A stretch of 64,000 nt of DNA from Hymenobacter busanensis (GTDB taxonomy: Bacteria > Bacteroidota > Bacteroidia > Cytophagales > Hymenobacteraceae), in the NCBI RefSeq assembly GCF_008727865.1, contig NZ_VTWU01000001.1:62001-126000 (forward strand), in the 5' to 3' direction. This document shows, piece after piece, positions 14,316 through 20,822 of this stretch. Within the stretch, counting starts at the first letter, position 1, and every line of letters begins with the position of its first letter. Position numbers and translations under genes: made by a program. A model generated the notes under the pieces. The model was not told the origin of the DNA. It saw nothing but the letters and a program-made list of their open reading frames with translations, and made no database searches.

Positions 14316-14359
14316 CAACGGCGCCCTGGATTTCATTCTGGGGCGCCGTTGGTTTTTCT
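14316..14359 (+). terminator. Rho-independent terminator after ftsZ
   Basis: A perfect 11-base stem (CAACGGCGCCC, 14316-14326, with its inverse at 14341-14351), 14-base loop, followed by a T-rich run. It closes the dcw cluster. Confidence 0.85.
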
Positions 14360-15489
14360 TATAAGTTGTCGATGGTAGGTTTAGGCCCCAACACTCGGTC
14401 AAGGGGCCGCTCAATAAGGTAATAAACGCCTACAGCCAGCAACTGCAGCAACACAAACTGCACCGGCAACAGACTGTGGTTGAGCAGGGAAGATACAGCG
14501 CGCTGTGCCACGCCCATGTGCAGCAGAAAGAAGGCGTAGGAGCTAAGCCCCAGTACCTGTAGCGGGCGTGAGGCAAGCAACGTGCGCAACCACGAGTGTT
14601 CCGTGAGCAGCCCGGCCAACAGAGCGGCTACTGCGAAGGGCAGTATCAGATTGTGGAGGGCCGCTCCCAGTGGGTGTTCGTGGCCAACCGGGTTGGAGAG
14701 GGCCGCCAGTGCAACCAATAACACCCCAAAACCTACGACGCCTCCGCAAGTCAGCCAGGGGAAGCGCCGCCGAGGAGCTACCGAAACATGGGAAGCCAGC
14801 CGCTGCCGGTACCACCGGGCCACCTGCCAGCCGACGACGAAATCGAGGATGCGGCCAAACGGCGTGGCGTGCCACATCAGGCCGTAGCTCTGCATGAAAC
14901 CGTGCCAAGCATGGCCGGCGCTTAACCATGCCAGCAGAACCCCCACTGCCCACAGCAGCGGTACCAGCCACCAAGCTGAAAACCGCTTGACCGCCAGCAG
15001 CGGCACCAGTAAATAGAACCCCGCTTCTGTTGTCAGCGACCAGCCTTGCGACACGCCGCTGAGCAGATATTCTTCGAAAAAGCCGCGCAGCAGCGTGAGG
15101 TTCAGCAGCAAGGCCAGCCAATCGAGCTGATGAGAACTGAAGGCTGCTACGCCGAAAGTGAGTAGGGTTACGAGCCAGTACAGCGGCAGGATACGGACGG
15201 CTCGGCTACGTAAATAGCGGCCTATGGTGCCGGGGGCCGAGAAACCGGACTGGTAGCGCAACCCCAGCAACAGCCCGCTCAGCACAAAAAACACCGTGAC
15301 GCCGGTGTACCATTCGCGCACGAAGGCATGGAGCCAGTGTGTGGCCCCGGCTGGCGCGAACGGGTTGAAATGAAAACCGAAAATCAGCCAAGCCGCCACG
15401 GCCCTCAGTCCGGTGAGGGCCGGCTGGTAACTTGTGGCTACTGGTGGTCGAGCGTCGGTAGGGGTGAGAGGCGATGCGGCGGAATGCAC
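14359..15489 (-). CDS. Acyltransferase family 3 (OafA-like) membrane protein
   Basis: This is probably an integral membrane O-acyltransferase that modifies a cell-surface polysaccharide or lipid; the acceptor cannot be told from sequence. The 376-residue product has about ten hydrophobic helices. It carries the family's early motif PALTGLRAVAAWLIFGFHF with its His, and the next-helix pattern WYTGVTVFFVLSGLLLGLRY. I chose GTG 15489, 22 bases after the preceding stop. The longer frame begins at TTG 15579 inside the upstream cytochrome gene and would add 30 uncharacteristic residues. It follows the cytochrome operon on the same strand, though a functional link is not evident. Confidence 0.85.
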   Translation of the reverse strand: MHSAASPLTPTDARPPVATSYQPALTGLRAVAAWLIFGFHFNPFAPAGATHWLHAFVREWYTGVTVFFVLSGLLLGLRYQSGFSAPGTIGRYLRSRAVRILPLYWLVTLLTFGVAAFSSHQLDWLALLLNLTLLRGFFEEYLLSGVSQGWSLTTEAGFYLLVPLLAVKRFSAWWLVPLLWAVGVLLAWLSAGHAWHGFMQSYGLMWHATPFGRILDFVVGWQVARWYRQRLASHVSVAPRRRFPWLTCGGVVGFGVLLVALAALSNPVGHEHPLGAALHNLILPFAVAALLAGLLTEHSWLRTLLASRPLQVLGLSSYAFFLLHMGVAQRAVSSLLNHSLLPVQFVLLQLLAVGVYYLIERPLDRVLGPKPTIDNL

Positions 15490-15511
15490 GCGCCGAAGAT
15501 ACTGCGTCGGC

Positions 15512-16648
15512 TTAGTTTGGGGCAGCGAACCGCGGGTCCTTGATGAACGTGGAATCGGTGAGGGTGTGCAGGAAAGCAACCAGCTGCCGCTTCTCGTCGG
15601 CCGTCAGATCCATGCGGCCGGTGCGGGAATTGTTGGAACTGAAGGCGAGCGACACATGCAGATTAGGGCTTTGCAACTGCACATGGTCGCTGTAGTGGTC
15701 GAGCACCTGCATCAAGGTCTGGAAACGGCCGTCGTGCATGTAGGGCGCCGTAAGGGCCACGTTGCGCAGCGTGGGAGCCTTGAAGGCGCCCATATCGACG
15801 GCTGCACCCGTGATGCCGCCGCGGCCAGGGTCGGCAAAGGTCATGTCGAGGCCGTTGTTGAAGAACTGGCCGGCGGGCGAAGTGAACGTGACAGGCGTAT
15901 GACAGTGAAAGCACTCGGCCCCGCGGATGCCGGGCACGGCGTGGCTGTTGAACAAGGTCAGCCCCTGAAATTCATCGGTGCCCGGCAGAATGGCGGTTTT
16001 GTCGCCGGCCGCGTACCGGTCGTAGCGCGAATTGCCCGAAATGAGAGTACGCTCGAACTGCGCCAGCGCCTTGAGGACGTTGTCTTCGGTGATTTTCGAC
16101 GAGCCGAAAGCCTTGCGAAACATCGGCGGATACTTGGCAATACCCTGCAGCTTGCGTACGCTCTCGATCAAGGGCTGGTGCATTTCCACCGGGTTTTCGA
16201 GTGGAATGCGGGCTTGCTGCTCCAAGCTGGTGCCGGCGCCGTCCCAAGTCAGGTTGGTCTCCCACACCACGTTGGCCAAGCTCATGGTGTTGCGCCGGTG
16301 CGGCGCGCCGCCATCGGCGCCAATGGCGTGGGCCAGCCCGTCGGTAAAGGCCTTGCTCTGCTGGTGGCAGGAGCCGCACGACTGGGTGCCGTTGCCGGAA
16401 AGCTGCTTTTCGTAGAACAGGTGCCGCCCCAGTTCCACGCCTTCCACCGTCAGCGGATTGTTGGGCGTGTTCGGAAAAGCCGGAAACAGTTTGTGGGGTG
16501 CCACCAGCGCATAGGGCGTAGGGGCAGGGGCTGGGCCTTCGGCGTCTCCTGGCACTACTACATCTTTATCGGGCTGGCAGGCGGCCGTCAGCAGCAGACC
16601 AACAGCAAGCGAGCAGACTCCAACGCGCACACGGCGAGAACGAAACAC
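15512..16648 (-). CDS. Diheme cytochrome c peroxidase / MauG-like lipoprotein (second copy)
   Basis: This is a periplasmic, lipid-anchored diheme protein of the bacterial CcpA/MauG superfamily. The start at GTG 16648 gives a basic n-region, a hydrophobic stretch and a lipobox ending LTAAC. Two haem-binding motifs are present: CGSCH and CFHCH. The conserved ends APTLRNVALTAPYMHDGRF and FLHTLTD are also present. The product of 378 residues is close to the family length. It is a paralogue of the gene at 17783-18838, with a predicted barrel gene between them. It may act in the same copper-linked oxidation as MbnH, or be a hydrogen peroxide reductase; sequence alone does not decide. A longer GTG start at 16708 is possible. 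Confidence 0.88.
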   Translation of the reverse strand: MFRSRRVRVGVCSLAVGLLLTAACQPDKDVVVPGDAEGPAPAPTPYALVAPHKLFPAFPNTPNNPLTVEGVELGRHLFYEKQLSGNGTQSCGSCHQQSKAFTDGLAHAIGADGGAPHRRNTMSLANVVWETNLTWDGAGTSLEQQARIPLENPVEMHQPLIESVRKLQGIAKYPPMFRKAFGSSKITEDNVLKALAQFERTLISGNSRYDRYAAGDKTAILPGTDEFQGLTLFNSHAVPGIRGAECFHCHTPVTFTSPAGQFFNNGLDMTFADPGRGGITGAAVDMGAFKAPTLRNVALTAPYMHDGRFQTLMQVLDHYSDHVQLQSPNLHVSLAFSSNNSRTGRMDLTADEKRQLVAFLHTLTDSTFIKDPRFAAPN

Positions 16649-16745
16649 GGGCGGCAGCAGGGTAAAGGTGGGTGGAATGGCCTCGAAGATAAGCAGTTCA
16701 GGAGCCACAACAAGGAGTTGCGGCCGGCGGTTCGGTGCAGCCGGC

Positions 16746-17738
16746 TTACTTCAGCAAATACTTCTGCTGCCGAAAGCTGTAGCCGAGGGCCAACACCAAA
16801 CGGCCGGCACTGGCGGGGTGGTCGGTGGCGGCGGTGTACACGGGCAGCTGCGCGCTGGCGTTCAGGCTCAGGTTTTTGTAATACACGTCGAGGCCCGGCC
16901 CGAGCAGGGCATTGTGCATGGCGTGTTCCCCGGTCAGCTCCCCTTCGAAGGTTTCGCCTTTGGTTTTCTCGTAGAACAGCTGCGCCGACGGGTACACCTG
17001 CCAGTCGCCCTTCAGTGGGAGGCGGTAAAACAAGTTGGCAAACGCCGCGCCGCTGGGCGCCAGGCCCTGCTGGTAGCGGTTGCGGTTGCTGCGGCGGTAA
17101 CTCGCGTTCAGGCTCAACCCCAGGTTGCGGTAGCTGCCGATGTAATTGGCGTACACAAACCCGTCGGTGGTGCCCGAGCCGGGCTGCGTCAGCTCGGCGT
17201 AGCGGCGGCCGCGGGCGTTGCGGCGGTTGTTGTCGCCGGTGGGCAGCTTGGCGCCGCCGCCCACAATCAGCCGGCTCTGAATGCCCGCGGTTTCGATCTG
17301 GCGAATGAGGTGGTAGCCAGCAAACACGGTCACGTCGCCCACGCCCGAGAGGGTGAGCTGCCGGCCGTTGCTTTGCACAGTGTTCATCACGTAAGGCACG
17401 AAGGCATTGACCTCCAAGCGCTGCGCCAGGAAGTATTTGCCCCGCAATTCCACTACCCGGTAGGCCTCAAAATCGGTGGGGTCGCCCTTGTGGGAGTGTT
17501 CGTAGTTGTCGTCGGCATTGCGCTGCTTGGGAAATAAGGGCCGAGTGTCGTCGGGAAAAAAGCGCGGCTGCTGGCCTAGGTTGCGGTAGCCGTCGAACAC
17601 GCGGTAGCGGTGCATCAGGGCCACGCTGCTTTGGTTGTCGTAGGGCGTAATGCCCATGAAACAGCCGCAAATGTCGCAGGCCCGCGCGGCCGGAGCGGCC
17701 AGCAGCAAGGCCGCGGTCAGGAAAAGAACGAAACGCAT
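16746..17738 (-). CDS. Predicted outer-membrane beta-barrel protein with CDICGC N-terminus
   Basis: The 330-residue product starts with a clear Sec signal peptide (MRFVLFLTAALLLAAPAARA) and the mature protein begins CDICGCFMGITPYDNQ. The rest alternates polar and aromatic residues in a pattern typical of a transmembrane barrel, including DVTVFAGYHLI and RLVLALGYSF at the end. The Cys-rich mature N-terminus could bind a metal. It lies between two diheme cytochrome genes and downstream of the MbnP-like gene, so a role as the outer-membrane partner of that system is likely. No exact function is known to me. ATG 17738 is preferred over 17780 because it gives the signal peptide. Confidence 0.75.
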   Translation of the reverse strand: MRFVLFLTAALLLAAPAARACDICGCFMGITPYDNQSSVALMHRYRVFDGYRNLGQQPRFFPDDTRPLFPKQRNADDNYEHSHKGDPTDFEAYRVVELRGKYFLAQRLEVNAFVPYVMNTVQSNGRQLTLSGVGDVTVFAGYHLIRQIETAGIQSRLIVGGGAKLPTGDNNRRNARGRRYAELTQPGSGTTDGFVYANYIGSYRNLGLSLNASYRRSNRNRYQQGLAPSGAAFANLFYRLPLKGDWQVYPSAQLFYEKTKGETFEGELTGEHAMHNALLGPGLDVYYKNLSLNASAQLPVYTAATDHPASAGRLVLALGYSFRQQKYLLK

Positions 17739-17782
17739 GGAATGCAAGTCGGAAACGCGGCCTAGGTAGGCGCAAGGCAAGT

Positions 17783-18838
17783 TTATTGCCGCTCGGCCAG
17801 GCGTTTGTCGTTGATAAAATCGTGGTCGGTCAGCGTCAGCAGGAAAGCCTGAATGTCGGCCTGCTCCTGCGCCGTGAGCGGAATACCCAGGCGGCCGCCG
17901 GGCTGGCGCAGTTGCGCGTCGAGGGTAGGCGAATCCTGCACGCCGTGGTCGTAGTGGGCCAGCACCTCGGCAAGGGTCTGGAAACGGCCGTCGTGCATAT
18001 AGGGCGCCGTAAGGGCCACGTTGCGCAGGCTCGGAACCTTGAACAATCCACGCTCGGCGGGCCGGCCCGTAATGTGCACCCGACCCGAATCGGCCGCGAA
18101 CGTGCGGTTCAGGCCGTTGTTGCGGTAGGTTTCGTCGGTAAACAAGTCGGTGGCGTGGCAGCCGCTACAGCGCTGGCGTACCAGGGCCAGCCCGCGCAAT
18201 TCATCCGTGGTGAGGGTGCCGCCGGCTTCGCCGCGGGCATAGTGGTCGTAGCGGGAGTTGGCCGACGTGAGAGCCGCTGTGAACTGCGCCAGGGCCCGCA
18301 AAAACTGCTGCGCGTTGATGGGGCCTTCGCCGTACACGGCCGCAAACCGCTGCCGGTAACCGGCGTCGGCGTTGAGCTTGCGCAGCACGTTTTCCAGCGT
18401 TTCGTCCATCTCCAACGGGTTGTTGATGGGCGCCAGCGGAATTATTTCGAGGTTTGAGACGCCCCCGTCCCACATAAAACTGCGGCCCCAGCGCAGGTTC
18501 TGCAGCGCCGGCGCGTTGCGGGTGCCCAGGCGCCCGTCGATGCCGTGGCTCAGGGTGTGCCCGGCGTGAGCAAAAGCCGCAAATTGTTGGTGGCACGAGC
18601 CGCACGACACCGATCCGTCACGCGAAAGGCGCGCGTCGTAGAACAGCTGGCGGCCGAGGGCAAACGAGGCGGGCGTGGTGGCTATCGGCGGCGTGTACAC
18701 CGGCGCAGGGAAGTTGCCCGGCACCACCGTGCCGGGCACTTCCTCGTCGGCCGGCCGCACGTCGCGGTCGGGGTGGCAAGCAGCCGAAAGCAGGGCCGCA
18801 AGCGCAACCGCCAGCCAGCCCGTAGCCTTGCGTATCAT
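17783..18838 (-). CDS. MbnH-like diheme cytochrome c peroxidase-family lipoprotein
   Basis: This is a diheme enzyme of the CcpA/MauG superfamily. The start at ATG 18838 gives a lipoprotein signal with lipobox LSAAC. Haem motifs CGSCH and CSGCH are present, along with SFMWDGGVSNLE and PSLRNVALTAPYMHDGRF. It lies 13 bases after the MbnP-like gene. In the characterised MbnP/MbnH pair, MbnH oxidises a tryptophan of MbnP to kynurenine to create a copper site, so the same reaction is the best guess here. The call as MbnH rests on this pairing, and a plain peroxidase is the alternative. Length is 351 residues. Confidence 0.8.
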   Translation of the reverse strand: MIRKATGWLAVALAALLSAACHPDRDVRPADEEVPGTVVPGNFPAPVYTPPIATTPASFALGRQLFYDARLSRDGSVSCGSCHQQFAAFAHAGHTLSHGIDGRLGTRNAPALQNLRWGRSFMWDGGVSNLEIIPLAPINNPLEMDETLENVLRKLNADAGYRQRFAAVYGEGPINAQQFLRALAQFTAALTSANSRYDHYARGEAGGTLTTDELRGLALVRQRCSGCHATDLFTDETYRNNGLNRTFAADSGRVHITGRPAERGLFKVPSLRNVALTAPYMHDGRFQTLAEVLAHYDHGVQDSPTLDAQLRQPGGRLGIPLTAQEQADIQAFLLTLTDHDFINDKRLAERQ

Positions 18839-18851
18839 GGCCGTACCGGGT

Positions 18852-19649
18852 TTAGTCGGCATGGATGTGGTCGATGCGGAACATGCCCGCCGCGTAGTTC
18901 TGCGAAATCTTCACCGAGTTGGGGTCGGAGCTGTGGCCGGTACCCGCCAGGGTGGCAAACCGCACGGTGTTCGGACCGGCAAACATCTTGTTCAGATCAG
19001 CCTTCAAGTGCACCTGGGGCGTCACGGTGCCGCGTACTTTCAGCGCGGTGCTGGCCGGCAGGGACGGCGACACGGTTTGCACCGTGTTGTTGGGCTTGCG
19101 GAAACCGCCGATGTGGAACTGCAAGGGGCCGCCGTTGGGCAGGTTGCCGGGGTTGGCGGCCTGCGGCGAGCTGCCTTCCATTTTCAGGAAGATGTAGCCC
19201 GAGCTCCAGCTCCAGTACATGTCGTTGTTTTGCGCCAGAGCGCCGGTTTGGGCCCCGCTCACGTTTCGGGTGCTGTCGACGCCGATGGTGAACGTAAGCT
19301 GGGTGTAGTCGCCGGTCGGCACGTCTTTCAGCGTGAAGCTGTGCGTATTTTCCTCGGCTTGCTTCACCAAGTGGTAGCTCTCGGGCTCGGCCCAGGTGGT
19401 GCCGTTGCTTTTGGTGAGCTTCACGTTGGAAATAAAGTAGTTGAACTTGGAAACCTTGAACTGGTCGCCGGCTTCGGTGGTGTAGTAGGTGGAGGCGTTC
19501 AGGGTAAGCGCCTGATTGCCCACTACGTTTTCAAATTCCAGGTCAACCGAGCCGGTGGCGGGTTGGTCTTCATCGTCGTCGCAGGAAGCAAAGAGCAGCG
19601 ACGCGGTAGCCAGGGAGAAAAGCAGGGTAGTAAGCTTCGGAAATTTCAT
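18852..19649 (-). CDS. MbnP-like copper-binding lipoprotein
   Basis: The 265-residue product has a lipoprotein signal (MKFPKLTTLLFSLATASLLFASC, broken here by its lipobox Cys at residue 23) followed by an acidic stretch. The mature part matches the MbnP pattern as I know it: GSVDLEFENVVG, FKVSKFNYFISNVKL, then MYWSWSSGYIFLKMEG with W146 and W148, and FHIGG later. In studied members a Trp becomes kynurenine and helps bind copper. W146 or W148 are candidates here. It is the second gene of the operon and lies directly before the MbnH-like gene. ATG 19649 is chosen; the frame is open further upstream but lacks a signal there. Confidence 0.82.
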   Translation of the reverse strand: MKFPKLTTLLFSLATASLLFASCDDDEDQPATGSVDLEFENVVGNQALTLNASTYYTTEAGDQFKVSKFNYFISNVKLTKSNGTTWAEPESYHLVKQAEENTHSFTLKDVPTGDYTQLTFTIGVDSTRNVSGAQTGALAQNNDMYWSWSSGYIFLKMEGSSPQAANPGNLPNGGPLQFHIGGFRKPNNTVQTVSPSLPASTALKVRGTVTPQVHLKADLNKMFAGPNTVRFATLAGTGHSSDPNSVKISQNYAAGMFRIDHIHAD

Positions 19650-19767
19650 CAACGGAAAACGGTTTCGGGTGGGAAGAACGGGCAGCGCCGCCACACCAAG
19701 CTGTACCCGGGAGCAAGCAAGAGGCGGTGCTGCCGCAGCCGTAACCAACGGCTGGCTGGTGCGCGGT

Positions 19768-20148
19768 TCAGGCCCTAACCAGTGGCGGATGAAATACACC
19801 CGGCGTCGGCCGCGACGGGCAGTCGGCTGGCTCAAACCCGGCAAAAAGCAGCGGCGTTGGCCGCAGAACGAGGCCCGCCGGCACCGCGGGGCGGGCAACT
19901 GGCACAACGTCGTACTTGATCTTGGCAAAGCCAGCGGCCGGTGTTTTGCCGGTGCCCTCGGTAGCTTTGCGGAGCTGCTTGCGCAAGTGGCACTTGCCGT
20001 TGCAGTGCATCTGAGGCCGCGCTTTGTTGATGCAAAACAGCTGCGTGACGCGCTCCTTGTGCACTTGGTAGTCCAAGACCATGACCTCCCGGCTGAACGT
20101 TTGCAGCAGGATGAGCACGGAAAGGAAACAAGCCAGCAGGCGTTGCAC
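19768..20148 (-). CDS. Small Cys/His-rich secreted or anchored protein (CNGKC motif)
   Basis: The 126-residue product starts at GTG 20148 with a hydrophobic segment (MQRLLACFLSVLILLQTFS), then YQVHKERVTQLFCINK and MHCNGKCHLRKQLRK. The potential metal ligands are C39, M47, H48, C49, C53 and H54. Small proteins with this pattern are familiar to me next to metal-handling genes of Bacteroidota, but I know no assigned function. It is the first gene of the MbnP operon, behind a perfect -7 box. The last 60 residues are low in recognisable pattern. The gene is probably real because of the motif and promoter; the role in copper binding is inference. Confidence 0.65.
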   Translation of the reverse strand: MQRLLACFLSVLILLQTFSREVMVLDYQVHKERVTQLFCINKARPQMHCNGKCHLRKQLRKATEGTGKTPAAGFAKIKYDVVPVARPAVPAGLVLRPTPLLFAGFEPADCPSRPTPGVFHPPLVRA

Positions 20149-20176
20149 GGCAGAAGGGGCCAGGGTGGGTGGTATT

Positions 20177-20184
20177 CAAAGATA
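20177..20184 (-). promoter_or_regulatory. -7 box of the copper operon promoter
   Basis: On the - strand TATCTTTG matches TAnnTTTG exactly, ending 29 bases before the GTG start at 20148. A clear TTTG at the expected -33 place is not seen, so the operon may need an activator or the -33 site is degenerate. Confidence 0.5.
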
Positions 20185-20238: not shown

Positions 20239-20766
20239 CTAGAACCGCAACAACAACTCGGCCTGTTCGCGCAGTAGTTGCAGGTACAGCGGGTGCGTCA
20301 GCTGCCCGTCGTCGGTCAGGTGTTGGTCGATGAAGGGCAGGCGCACGCGCTGGGGCAGCACGGCCGTGCCGAGGTACATAAGCACGTCGGTGAGGTGGCT
20401 GAGGGCCAGCAAGCCGCCCTGCCCACCCGACGACAACCCTACCAGCGCCGCCTTTTTGCCCCGAATGCCGCCGGGGTAGGGCAGCCCGTCGATAAAGGCC
20501 TTGAGCGCGCCGGGAAACGAGCAGTTGTACTCGGGCACGATGAACACCAACTTGTCGGCGTCGCTGGCTTGCTGGGCGAGGTGGTTGAAGCCGGTGTGCA
20601 GGCCCGCGTTGTCGTAAAGCGCCGTGGTCAGAAAATCGGCGGGCAGCTCCACCAAATCCAGAATCTGGTGGGGCGCGGCGTACTCGCGCAGCAGCGCGGC
20701 GTAGAGGTTGGCCACGCGCCGGGCGCGGGAGTGGGGCCGGTTGGTACCGGCAACGATGGTTATCAT
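20239..20766 (-). CDS. NADPH-dependent FMN reductase-like flavoprotein
   Basis: This is a flavodoxin-fold oxidoreductase of the NADPH-dependent FMN reductase family, cytoplasmic. The 175-residue product begins MITIVAGTNRPHSRARRVA, which holds the FMN phosphate loop, then VFIVPEYNCSFPGALKAFID with the conserved PEYN, then KKAALVGLSSGGQGG. ATG 20766 gives the standard start directly at the first strand; the longer frame to 20820 runs through repeat-like sequence. It lies between the copper operon and sdhB on the same strand. The physiological acceptor (flavin, azo dye or quinone) cannot be told. Confidence 0.88.
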   Translation of the reverse strand: MITIVAGTNRPHSRARRVANLYAALLREYAAPHQILDLVELPADFLTTALYDNAGLHTGFNHLAQQASDADKLVFIVPEYNCSFPGALKAFIDGLPYPGGIRGKKAALVGLSSGGQGGLLALSHLTDVLMYLGTAVLPQRVRLPFIDQHLTDDGQLTHPLYLQLLREQAELLLRF

Positions 20767-20822
20767 CGGAAGGAGCTGGAAGTCAGAAGCTGGCAGACGG
20801 GAACGGAGCGCAGAAAGCAAAA

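What the first reader, a model, noticed from the sequence alone, without database searches (positions are those of the whole stretch)
15512..20184. MbnP/MbnH-like copper operon with a second diheme enzyme and a barrel
Seen: five genes in a row on one strand (Cys/His-rich protein, MbnP-like, diheme, CDICGC barrel, second diheme). Known: MbnH converts a Trp of MbnP to kynurenine to form a copper site. A second diheme paralogue and a Cys-rich barrel are additions that I do not know from the described pairs. Inference: a copper storage or export system in the cell envelope, with two oxidation steps.
Basis: partly seen in the sequence, partly recalled or inferred. Interest (0 to 1): 0.65.

Follow-up and report, generated by a model that had tools for sequence, protein, structure and literature searches.

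The report
Bacteroidota copper operon with membrane channel
Five neighbouring genes of a Hymenobacter-like bacterium encode a probable copper-binding lipoprotein, two heme enzymes that probably modify it, an outer-membrane channel and a small cysteine protein; four of the five recur together in many members of the phylum Bacteroidota and look like one copper-handling machine.

Summary
The five genes are real. The MbnP-like protein is an MbnP: Pfam 207 bits (cut-off 27), predicted fold Z 17.5 to solved MbnP 7l6g, and Met144, Trp146, Trp148, His179 kept. Both dihemes are MauG/MbnH-like, with both CxxCH motifs, the inter-heme Trp and the Tyr ligand. The second is no recent copy: it belongs to a separate clade and stands at 8 of 9 MbnP-diheme loci seen in the window's family. 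The 'barrel' is a predicted outer-membrane channel (Z 24 to COG4313, 22 to FapF) with an N-terminal CDICGC.

CYS-MbnP-diheme-barrel recurs in Bacteroidota: 41 of 43 strong barrel hits in a 395-genome draw have an MbnP within 6 kb, though many MbnPs have no barrel. Barrel-linked MbnPs carry extra His (H214 and a C-terminal HxH) in 104 of 112 cases, unlinked ones in 7 of 55. At 14 of 16 further CYS loci picked by eye, a TonB-receptor-like gene follows. This leans towards copper uptake and hand-over, not storage or export.

'Two oxidation steps' has no support beyond two intact-looking enzymes. There is no experiment on copper or kynurenine. Verdict: new variant of the MbnP/MbnH kind, with a channel module attached.

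The parts
20177..20184 (-). TATCTTTG, fits the Bacteroidota -7 box TAnnTTTG (consensus recalled), 28 bases upstream of the first gene; weak
   Evidence: 14 matches in the window against 15.9 expected, so only its position speaks for it; no clear -33 box seen by eye
19768..20148 (-). CYS: 126-aa small protein, N-terminal hydrophobic stretch, C39, C49-N-G51-K-C53, C-terminal P121-P122
   Evidence: C39, C49, C53, P121, P122 kept in 43 of 43 sequences (window included), G51 in 98%; no Pfam or NCBIfam match up to E 1
18852..19649 (-). MbnP lipoprotein, 265 aa: lipobox Cys23 followed by DDDED; Cu(I)-site residues M144, W146 (predicted Trp to kynurenine), W148, H179; extra His H214, H261, H263
   Evidence: PF20243 E 3.2e-61; profile match to 7l6g; model pLDDT 89.3, Z 17.5 to 7l6g
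17783..18838 (-). Diheme 1, MbnH/MauG-like lipoprotein: CxxCH at 79-83 and 224-228, W123, Tyr296 predicted heme ligand
   Evidence: PF03150 E 1.9e-52; TIGR04039 220.7 bits, under its cut-off of 362.85; nearest solved chain 6e1c; residues
16746..17738 (-). Barrel: signal peptide, C20-D-I-C23-G-C25 (numbering without the first Met), then a predicted outer-membrane channel
   Evidence: model pLDDT 82.3, residues 14-25 under 50; Foldseek and VIA Z 24.0 to 4rl8 COG4313 channel, 22.1 to FapF 5o65; no Pfam match in the query, and in 29 members scanned only three families matched, by one member each
15512..16708 (-). Diheme 2, MbnH/MauG-like lipoprotein: CxxCH at 111-115 and 266-270, W155, Tyr339, clade-specific insert with H256, R262, G263 before the second CxxCH; likely start GTG at 16648
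   Evidence: PF03150 E 2e-57; TIGR04039 300.3 bits, under cut-off; nearest solved chain 6e1c; separate clade, insert

Best explanation
A copper capture and hand-over system of the outer membrane. Shown by computation: the gene set, families, predicted folds, conserved residues and co-occurrence. Inferred: diheme 1 (MbnH-like) turns W146 of the lipoprotein MbnP into kynurenine, which completes a Cu(I) site with H179 and M144, as in solved MbnP. MbnP sits on the outer membrane, perhaps on the outer face, and presents copper to the channel. The extra His of MbnP (H214, H261, H263) form a second, exchange-type site used when the channel is there. The CDICGC at the channel's N-terminus and the three Cys of the small anchored CYS protein relay Cu(I) into the periplasm, where SCO1-type proteins can use it. 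Diheme 2 does the same kind of protein oxidation on MbnP, or is a back-up or alternative diheme; that part is least certain.
For: MbnP family, fold and the Met/Trp/His site; WxW at 146/148 in 171 of 172 MbnPs, His at 179 in 160 of 172. Both dihemes keep hemes, Trp and Tyr ligand. Barrel is a COG4313/FapF-type channel by model. In a 395-genome phylum draw 41 of 43 barrel hits with E under 1e-30 have an MbnP within 6 kb on the same strand. Extra His (H214 plus an HxH in the last 25 residues): barrel-linked 104 of 112, unlinked 7 of 55; closest-pair contrasts on the best tree, support ignored, about 11.5 for and 0 against. HxH without H214: 0 of 172. CYS upstream in 47 of 50 barrel-linked against 16 of 45 unlinked MbnPs of the unnamed set. 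At 16 CYS loci picked by eye, a TonB-receptor-like gene follows in 14 (5 of the 14 checked by HMM), one nearest to TIGR01778 'TonB-copper'. SCO1/SenC-like genes are the commonest adjacent cluster, 17 of 234 distinct adjacent genes (one representative checked). Export-signal-like residues after the lipid Cys: MbnP 24 of 147, dihemes 4 of 137, other ORFs 4 of 229, after the published signal (PMC5080379, passages).
Against: No copper, kynurenine, localisation or expression data. Direction of flow is inferred from neighbours; the TIGR01778 hit is far below its cut-off (129.8 of 472.45). With well-supported branches only, the His/barrel association is 6 contrasts and median p 0.125. Eight barrel-linked MbnPs lack the extra His (six of one distant group, L117, L119), 7 unlinked ones have it, and 4 barrels next to an HxH-MbnP lack the CGC. 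Many MbnPs occur without a barrel: 107 against 53 of 148 order genomes. No coordinates are given, so that H214, H261 and H263 lie together is not shown. 123 of 147 MbnPs do not match the export-signal pattern used. A Deinococcus MbnP gene sits with CopC/CopD, which fits other roles.
Confidence: 0.5

Rival explanations
1. Copper detoxification or export: MbnP binds excess Cu(I) in the envelope and the channel lets it out; CYS is a periplasmic Cu buffer.
For: The channel resembles barrels without a TonB plug; the Cys motifs suit Cu(I) sequestration (inference); in Deinococcus an MbnP gene and a cytochrome-c peroxidase gene are near CopC and CopD.
Against: At 14 of 16 chosen CYS loci a TonB-receptor-like gene, of an importing kind, follows. 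The 8 representatives of recurrent adjacent clusters that I scanned held no efflux family, but the other clusters and 107 singletons were not scanned. The functional analogue CorA is copper-repressed and proposed for acquisition (PMC3912023, passages).
Confidence: 0.25
2. Two-step maturation: diheme 1 and diheme 2 oxidise different residues (for example W146 and W148, or Trp then Met) of the same MbnP.
For: Both enzymes look intact and belong to different clades; in 6 of the 8 family genomes with an MbnP there is one MbnP, with two dihemes beside it; the own genome has two TIGR04039-type dihemes, both here.
Against: Both Trp are kept in 171 of 172 MbnPs, also where one diheme is seen; a DH2-type enzyme is the only diheme seen beside MbnP in L115 and L118 (L118's contig is short); a second locus of the family (L113) has one diheme.
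Confidence: 0.2
3. The channel's substrate is not copper but a ligand (chelator) or a protein; the Cys at its N-terminus form a disulfide or anchor only.
For: FapF is a polypeptide transporter (PDB titles); related barrels with CC or CxC N-termini occur without MbnP, one beside DUF3179; CYS and barrel stand together without an MbnP beside them in L157, L159, L164, although the genomes of the first two have an MbnP elsewhere.
Against: The tight tie of the strong barrel hits to MbnP and to its extra His.
Confidence: 0.2

Closest known systems
MbnP/MbnH pair (Methylosinus trichosporium MbnP 7l6g; di-heme enzyme 6e1c, taken from recall to be its MbnH)
   Same: MbnP fold and Met, Trp-x-Trp, His site; MauG-type diheme with Tyr ligand; adjacent genes
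   Different: Lipoproteins; no four-Cys motif (one Cys in the window MbnP); extra His; CYS and channel genes; second diheme; no MbnB homologue found in the genome
MopE/SACCP and CorA/CorB of methanotrophs
   Same: Kynurenine Cu(I) site, gene next to a diheme peroxidase gene; surface location (PMC3912023, PMC3621798, passages)
   Different: A 2013 paper finds MbnP not markedly similar in sequence to them; two His instead of His and Met; no channel gene in the passages read
COG4313 channel (4rl8) and FapF (5o65)
   Same: Predicted fold, Z 24.0 and 22.1
   Different: Identity 16%; CDICGC N-terminus; linked to MbnP
TonB-dependent copper receptor loci (TIGR01778)
   Same: CYS-type gene upstream of an outer-membrane barrel gene (L281; the receptor is below the family cut-off)
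   Different: Here the barrel is a small channel, not a TonB receptor, and MbnP and dihemes are added

Membership tests
MbnP (Pfam PF20243) | Score over the curated cut-off (27 bits) | tested here: met
   207 bits, E 3.2e-61
MbnP (Pfam PF20243) | Fold of solved MbnP 7l6g | tested here: met
   predicted model: Foldseek E 9.9e-10; VIA Z 17.5, rmsd 3.0, 215 residues
MbnP (Pfam PF20243) | WxW with flanking Met and a His aligned to 7l6g (ligand set recalled from the 2021 MbnP paper, not held) | tested here: met
   M144, W146, W148, H179 align
MbnP (Pfam PF20243) | First Trp converted to kynurenine; one Cu(I) bound | not testable with these tools
   needs mass spectrometry and metal analysis
TIGR04052 MbnP_like_WxW equivalog | Score over its cut-off (140) | tested here: not met
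   58 bits: a relative, not a member of that equivalog
TIGR04052 MbnP_like_WxW equivalog | Four-Cys motif (name of 7l6g in the PDB) | tested here: not met
   only C23, the lipid Cys, in the translation
CCP_MauG superfamily (PF03150) | Score over cut-off (25.6) and two CxxCH | tested here: met
   178.3 and 194.5 bits; CxxCH twice in each
MbnH (TIGR04039) | Score over its cut-off (362.85) | tested here: not met
   220.7 and 300.3 bits; still the best-scoring NCBIfam model for both
MbnH (TIGR04039) | Tyr as axial ligand of the second heme in place of Met | tested here: met
   Y296 and Y339 align with a Tyr of 6e1c; the ligand role itself is recalled
MauG (TIGR03791) | Score over cut-off (443.85) | tested here: not met
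   178.1 and 206.8 bits
COG4313 / FapF outer-membrane channels | Barrel fold | tested here: met
   Z 24.0 and 22.1 on a predicted model
COG4313 / FapF outer-membrane channels | Sequence membership | tested here: inconclusive
   no Pfam match for the window barrel; COG models not on hand
Methanobactin operon | MbnB homologue (PF05114) in the genome | tested here: not met
   0 matches in the own genome
MopE/CorA kynurenine copper proteins | Sequence or fold homology | not tested
   a 2013 paper calls MbnP not markedly similar to them (PMC3621798, passages)

The most novel reading that the evidence does not exclude
A phylum-wide metal-transfer machine in which a heme enzyme writes a copper site into a surface lipoprotein by oxidising a Trp, and that lipoprotein feeds Cu(I) through a dedicated, Cys-gated outer-membrane channel without TonB; MbnP has a second His site that is kept only together with the channel, and the small CYS protein is a general copper-relay partner of outer-membrane barrels.
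Probability: 0.3. Interest if true: 0.8.

Novelty: new variant of a known kind. Interest (0 to 1): 0.6.

Why it matters
How Bacteroidota move copper across the outer membrane is, as far as I recall, little understood. If the reading holds, kynurenine copper sites are part of a common Bacteroidota operon with its own channel. The role of MbnP then becomes testable in cultured genera such as Pedobacter and Chitinophaga, where the four-gene unit is present.

Tried and rejected
Diheme 2 as a recent tandem copy of diheme 1: rejected, because the two lie in separate starred sets of 8 and 65 rows. Diheme 2 as the partner of the orphan second MbnP: weak, because 6 of 8 family genomes with MbnP have one MbnP and two dihemes beside it. 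Methanobactin operon: rejected. Barrel as a Pfam family: no match in the query. Barrel by sequence in the PDB: one antibody light chain, E 0.0047, taken as chance. MbnP by single-sequence search in the PDB: nothing up to E 1; found only with a profile. 'The third Cys of the barrel decides the MbnP His': first seen as 42 of 42 with CGC against 0 of 8, then weakened by 4 of 71 named operons with HxH but without CGC. Surface export signal: enriched in MbnP but in a minority (the 'other' ORFs there include unreal ones). CYS family by HMM: 1 of 28 members matched one NCBIfam model, QH_gamma, E 0.0043; HYC_CC_PP, thought of from memory, was not matched. TonB-copper model in the own genome: 4 weak matches, none over the cut-off, best 44.9 bits, not followed.

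Papers: searches for MbnP, MbnH, metallo-mystery, kynurenine/diheme/Bacteroidetes and methanobactin/MauG showed no paper on this operon in the rows listed; the lists were capped at 20, 15 and 20 rows of 55, 122 and 860 papers. PMC3621798, PMC3912023 and PMC5080379 were seen as passages only. The library lacks most subscription papers, so 'not found described' is limited to it. The 2021 MbnP paper and a 2019 MbnH paper are recalled only (not held).

Distances between H214, H261 and H263 could not be measured: no coordinates are handed out.
Full report
What is there. Five genes follow each other on the - strand. They lie between an acyltransferase ORF (14359-15579, PF01757) and an NADPH-dependent FMN reductase gene (20239-20820, PF03358). 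The window's family (code f1) is taken to be Hymenobacteraceae: contig 3 of same-family genome G087 has the length of a plasmid of Hymenobacter sp. BRD128 (67,092 bases) and carries a barrel at the same place.

MbnP. The 265-aa lipoprotein (18852-19649) scores 207 bits with PF20243. It does not reach the TIGR04052 equivalog cut-off (58 of 140 bits). A profile of 35 relatives finds one solved chain up to E 10, 7l6g (E 6.5e-05), and aligns M144, W146, W148 and H179 with Met, Trp, Trp and His of it. The AlphaFold2 model (pLDDT 89.3) matches 7l6g with Foldseek E 9.9e-10 and VIA Z 17.5 over 215 residues. In 172 distinct MbnPs, 146 and 148 are Trp in 171, position 179 is His in 160 and position 144 is Met in 166 of that alignment (the motif MxWxW is in 158). 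From recall of the 2021 paper, the solved site uses His, Met, a solvent and the kynurenine of the first Trp; that paper is not held.

Dihemes. Both belong to PF03150, and the nearest solved chain is 6e1c, a 'di-heme enzyme'. TIGR04039 (MbnH family) is the best NCBIfam model for both but neither reaches its cut-off. Both keep two CxxCH, the Trp next to DG and the Tyr that takes the place of a ligand Met (ligand roles recalled from MauG). In a quick tree of 96 dihemes (SH-aLRT only) the first falls in a starred set of 65. The second falls in a starred set of 8, all second dihemes of the window's family, and, with support 88, with single or first dihemes of L115, L117, L118 and L120. All 12 of these share an insert before the second CxxCH with a His in 12 of 12, absent from the 65. 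Nine MbnP-diheme loci of the family were seen. Eight have the second diheme, with a barrel (window, L062, L068, L073, L074) or without (L099, L108, L109); the ninth, L113, a second locus of G074, has one diheme. In L062 and L074 an opposite-strand gene intervenes. A TIGR04039 search of the own genome finds these two dihemes and no other.

Barrel. It has no Pfam or NCBIfam match. The model (pLDDT 82.3, low at residues 14-25) is a beta-barrel whose best solved matches are FapF and the COG4313 channel, Z 24.0 for 4rl8 and 22.1 for 5o65. C20, C23, G24 and C25 are kept in 97-100% of 32 order-level sequences.

CYS. Three Cys, a Gly between two of them and a C-terminal Pro-Pro are kept in 98-100% of 43 sequences. 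It is found in 93 of 148 genomes of the order, more than the barrel (53 of 148) and less than MbnP (107 of 148). So many MbnPs have no barrel.

Co-occurrence. Sixty order-level stretches were read, most by MbnP rank and the last dozen or so picked by hand, some for a barrel hit. In the phylum draw of 395 genomes the barrel profile hits 108 genomes and MbnP 97 (many of the barrel hits are weak). Of the 61 best barrel rows given to the script, all 43 with E under 1e-30 lie in genomes with an MbnP and 41 lie within 6 kb of it on the same strand; of the 18 rows between 3e-30 and 2e-19 none does. Ten of those 18 were read: nine have CC or CxC N-termini and one, L164, has CDFC and a CYS gene before it. 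Barrel-linked MbnPs have CYS upstream in 47 of 50 and an adjacent diheme in 49 of 50 in the unnamed set, and in 66 and 70 of 71 in the named set; unlinked MbnPs of the unnamed set have CYS upstream in 16 of 45. CYS and barrel also stand together without MbnP beside them in L157, L159 and L164.

Extra His. I scored H at position 214 together with an HxH in the last 25 residues (H261, H263 in the window). Linked MbnPs have both in 104 of 112 cases, unlinked ones in 7 of 55; 5 were not scored because the contig ends. The 8 linked ones without them are 6 operons of one starred distant group plus L117 and L119. HxH never occurs without H214 (112 both, 9 H214 only, 51 neither). For HxH alone in the named set: 71 of 71 linked and 4 of 17 unlinked. 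In tandem operons (L200, L207, L208, L218, L268; Pedobacter, Gynurincola, Chitinophaga) the MbnP next to the barrel has HxH and the other has not. The traits change at least 21 and 17 times on the tree. With starred branches only there are 6 independent contrasts, same way in 3.9, opposite 0.0, median p 0.125. With all branches of the best tree, paired greedily by my own script, about 11.5 same, 0 opposite, 8 no difference, median p 0.0005, maximum 0.012; this ignores branch support. So the association is strong and repeated, but not proven beyond shared descent by the strict test.

Context and direction. Sixteen further CYS loci were picked by eye: in 14 a TonB-receptor-like gene follows on the same strand (11 directly or after a second CYS, 3 after one other gene), and in 2 a barrel and an MbnP follow. 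Five of the 14 receptors were checked by HMM, the rest by look. In L281 the receptor's best NCBIfam model is the TonB-dependent copper receptor TIGR01778 (129.8 bits, cut-off 472.45), with a YtkA-like gene between. Next to the MbnP operons the commonest cluster of adjacent genes is SCO1/SenC (17 of 234 distinct adjacent genes; one representative checked). Other recurrent clusters are two without Pfam family (15 and 11), DUF2911, AraC regulators, TonB receptors and PepSY_TM proteins. CorA, a functional analogue with a kynurenine copper site, is copper-repressed, on the surface, and proposed for acquisition (PMC3912023, passages). Together these lean towards import; none is direct, and an MbnP gene near CopC/CopD in Deinococcus allows other roles.

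Mechanism and its weak steps. Supported by homology: Trp to kynurenine in MbnP by a diheme, Cu(I) site. Inferred: second His site, exchange with the channel's Cys and with CYS, import, role of diheme 2. The published Bacteroidota export signal is K-(D/E)2 or Q-A-(D/E)2 in one species and SDDDD or SDDFE in two others (PMC5080379, passages); the window MbnP has C-D-D-D-E-D, while the dihemes have C-H-P-D-R-D and C-Q-P-D-K-D. Enrichment over all MbnPs is clear but in a minority, 24 of 147.

Novelty. The pair is known (TIGR04039/TIGR04052, PMC3621798). The channel, the CYS protein and the barrel-linked His were not found described in the searches listed under Tried and rejected. I rate it a new variant of a known kind.

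Noticed in passing
own genome G000:C3:955846-956412 (L002, L114): A second, orphan MbnP with no diheme, barrel or CYS hit in the 15-kb stretch read; keeps WxW, H214 and HxH but has Asp at the place of H179.
   Followed up: partly
L088:3847-4716, L093:2715-3581, L094:4477-5265, L076:5725-6657, and the first MbnP of L200, L207, L208, L218, L268: MbnP subclass with Glu at the place of H179 (9 of 172), none barrel-linked by my rule; in 8 sequences the Met lies between the two Trp (WMW): possibly a differently built copper site.
   Followed up: partly
L272-L287: CYS-type small proteins encoded upstream of TonB-receptor-like genes, with PepSY_TM, BNR_2 or YtkA-like neighbours: maybe a general partner of metal-handling outer-membrane barrels.
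   Followed up: partly
L165:6278-7243, L170:5843-6802 and others: Related barrels with CC or CxC N-termini, no MbnP beside them; the next gene is DUF3179 in L165 (Pfam) and by look in L170.
   Followed up: partly
L159:6354-6797: Lipoprotein-like ORF with HAHIH directly after a CYS-barrel pair that has no MbnP beside it: a possible MbnP substitute.
   Followed up: no
L269 (plasmid NZ_CP053910.1, 61654-62580): Lone barrel, 70% identical, on a Hymenobacter plasmid beside a recombinase gene, no MbnP match on that plasmid; the same genome's chromosomal MbnP operon (L109) lacks the barrel.
   Followed up: partly
L270 (Deinococcus radiodurans plasmid): MbnP and cytochrome-c peroxidase genes, then one hypothetical gene, CopC and CopD.
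   Followed up: no
L090:3960-4364 and 14 in its cluster: Small secreted-looking protein (FHxVMSQTFHP) without Pfam family adjacent to or inside many of these operons.
   Followed up: no
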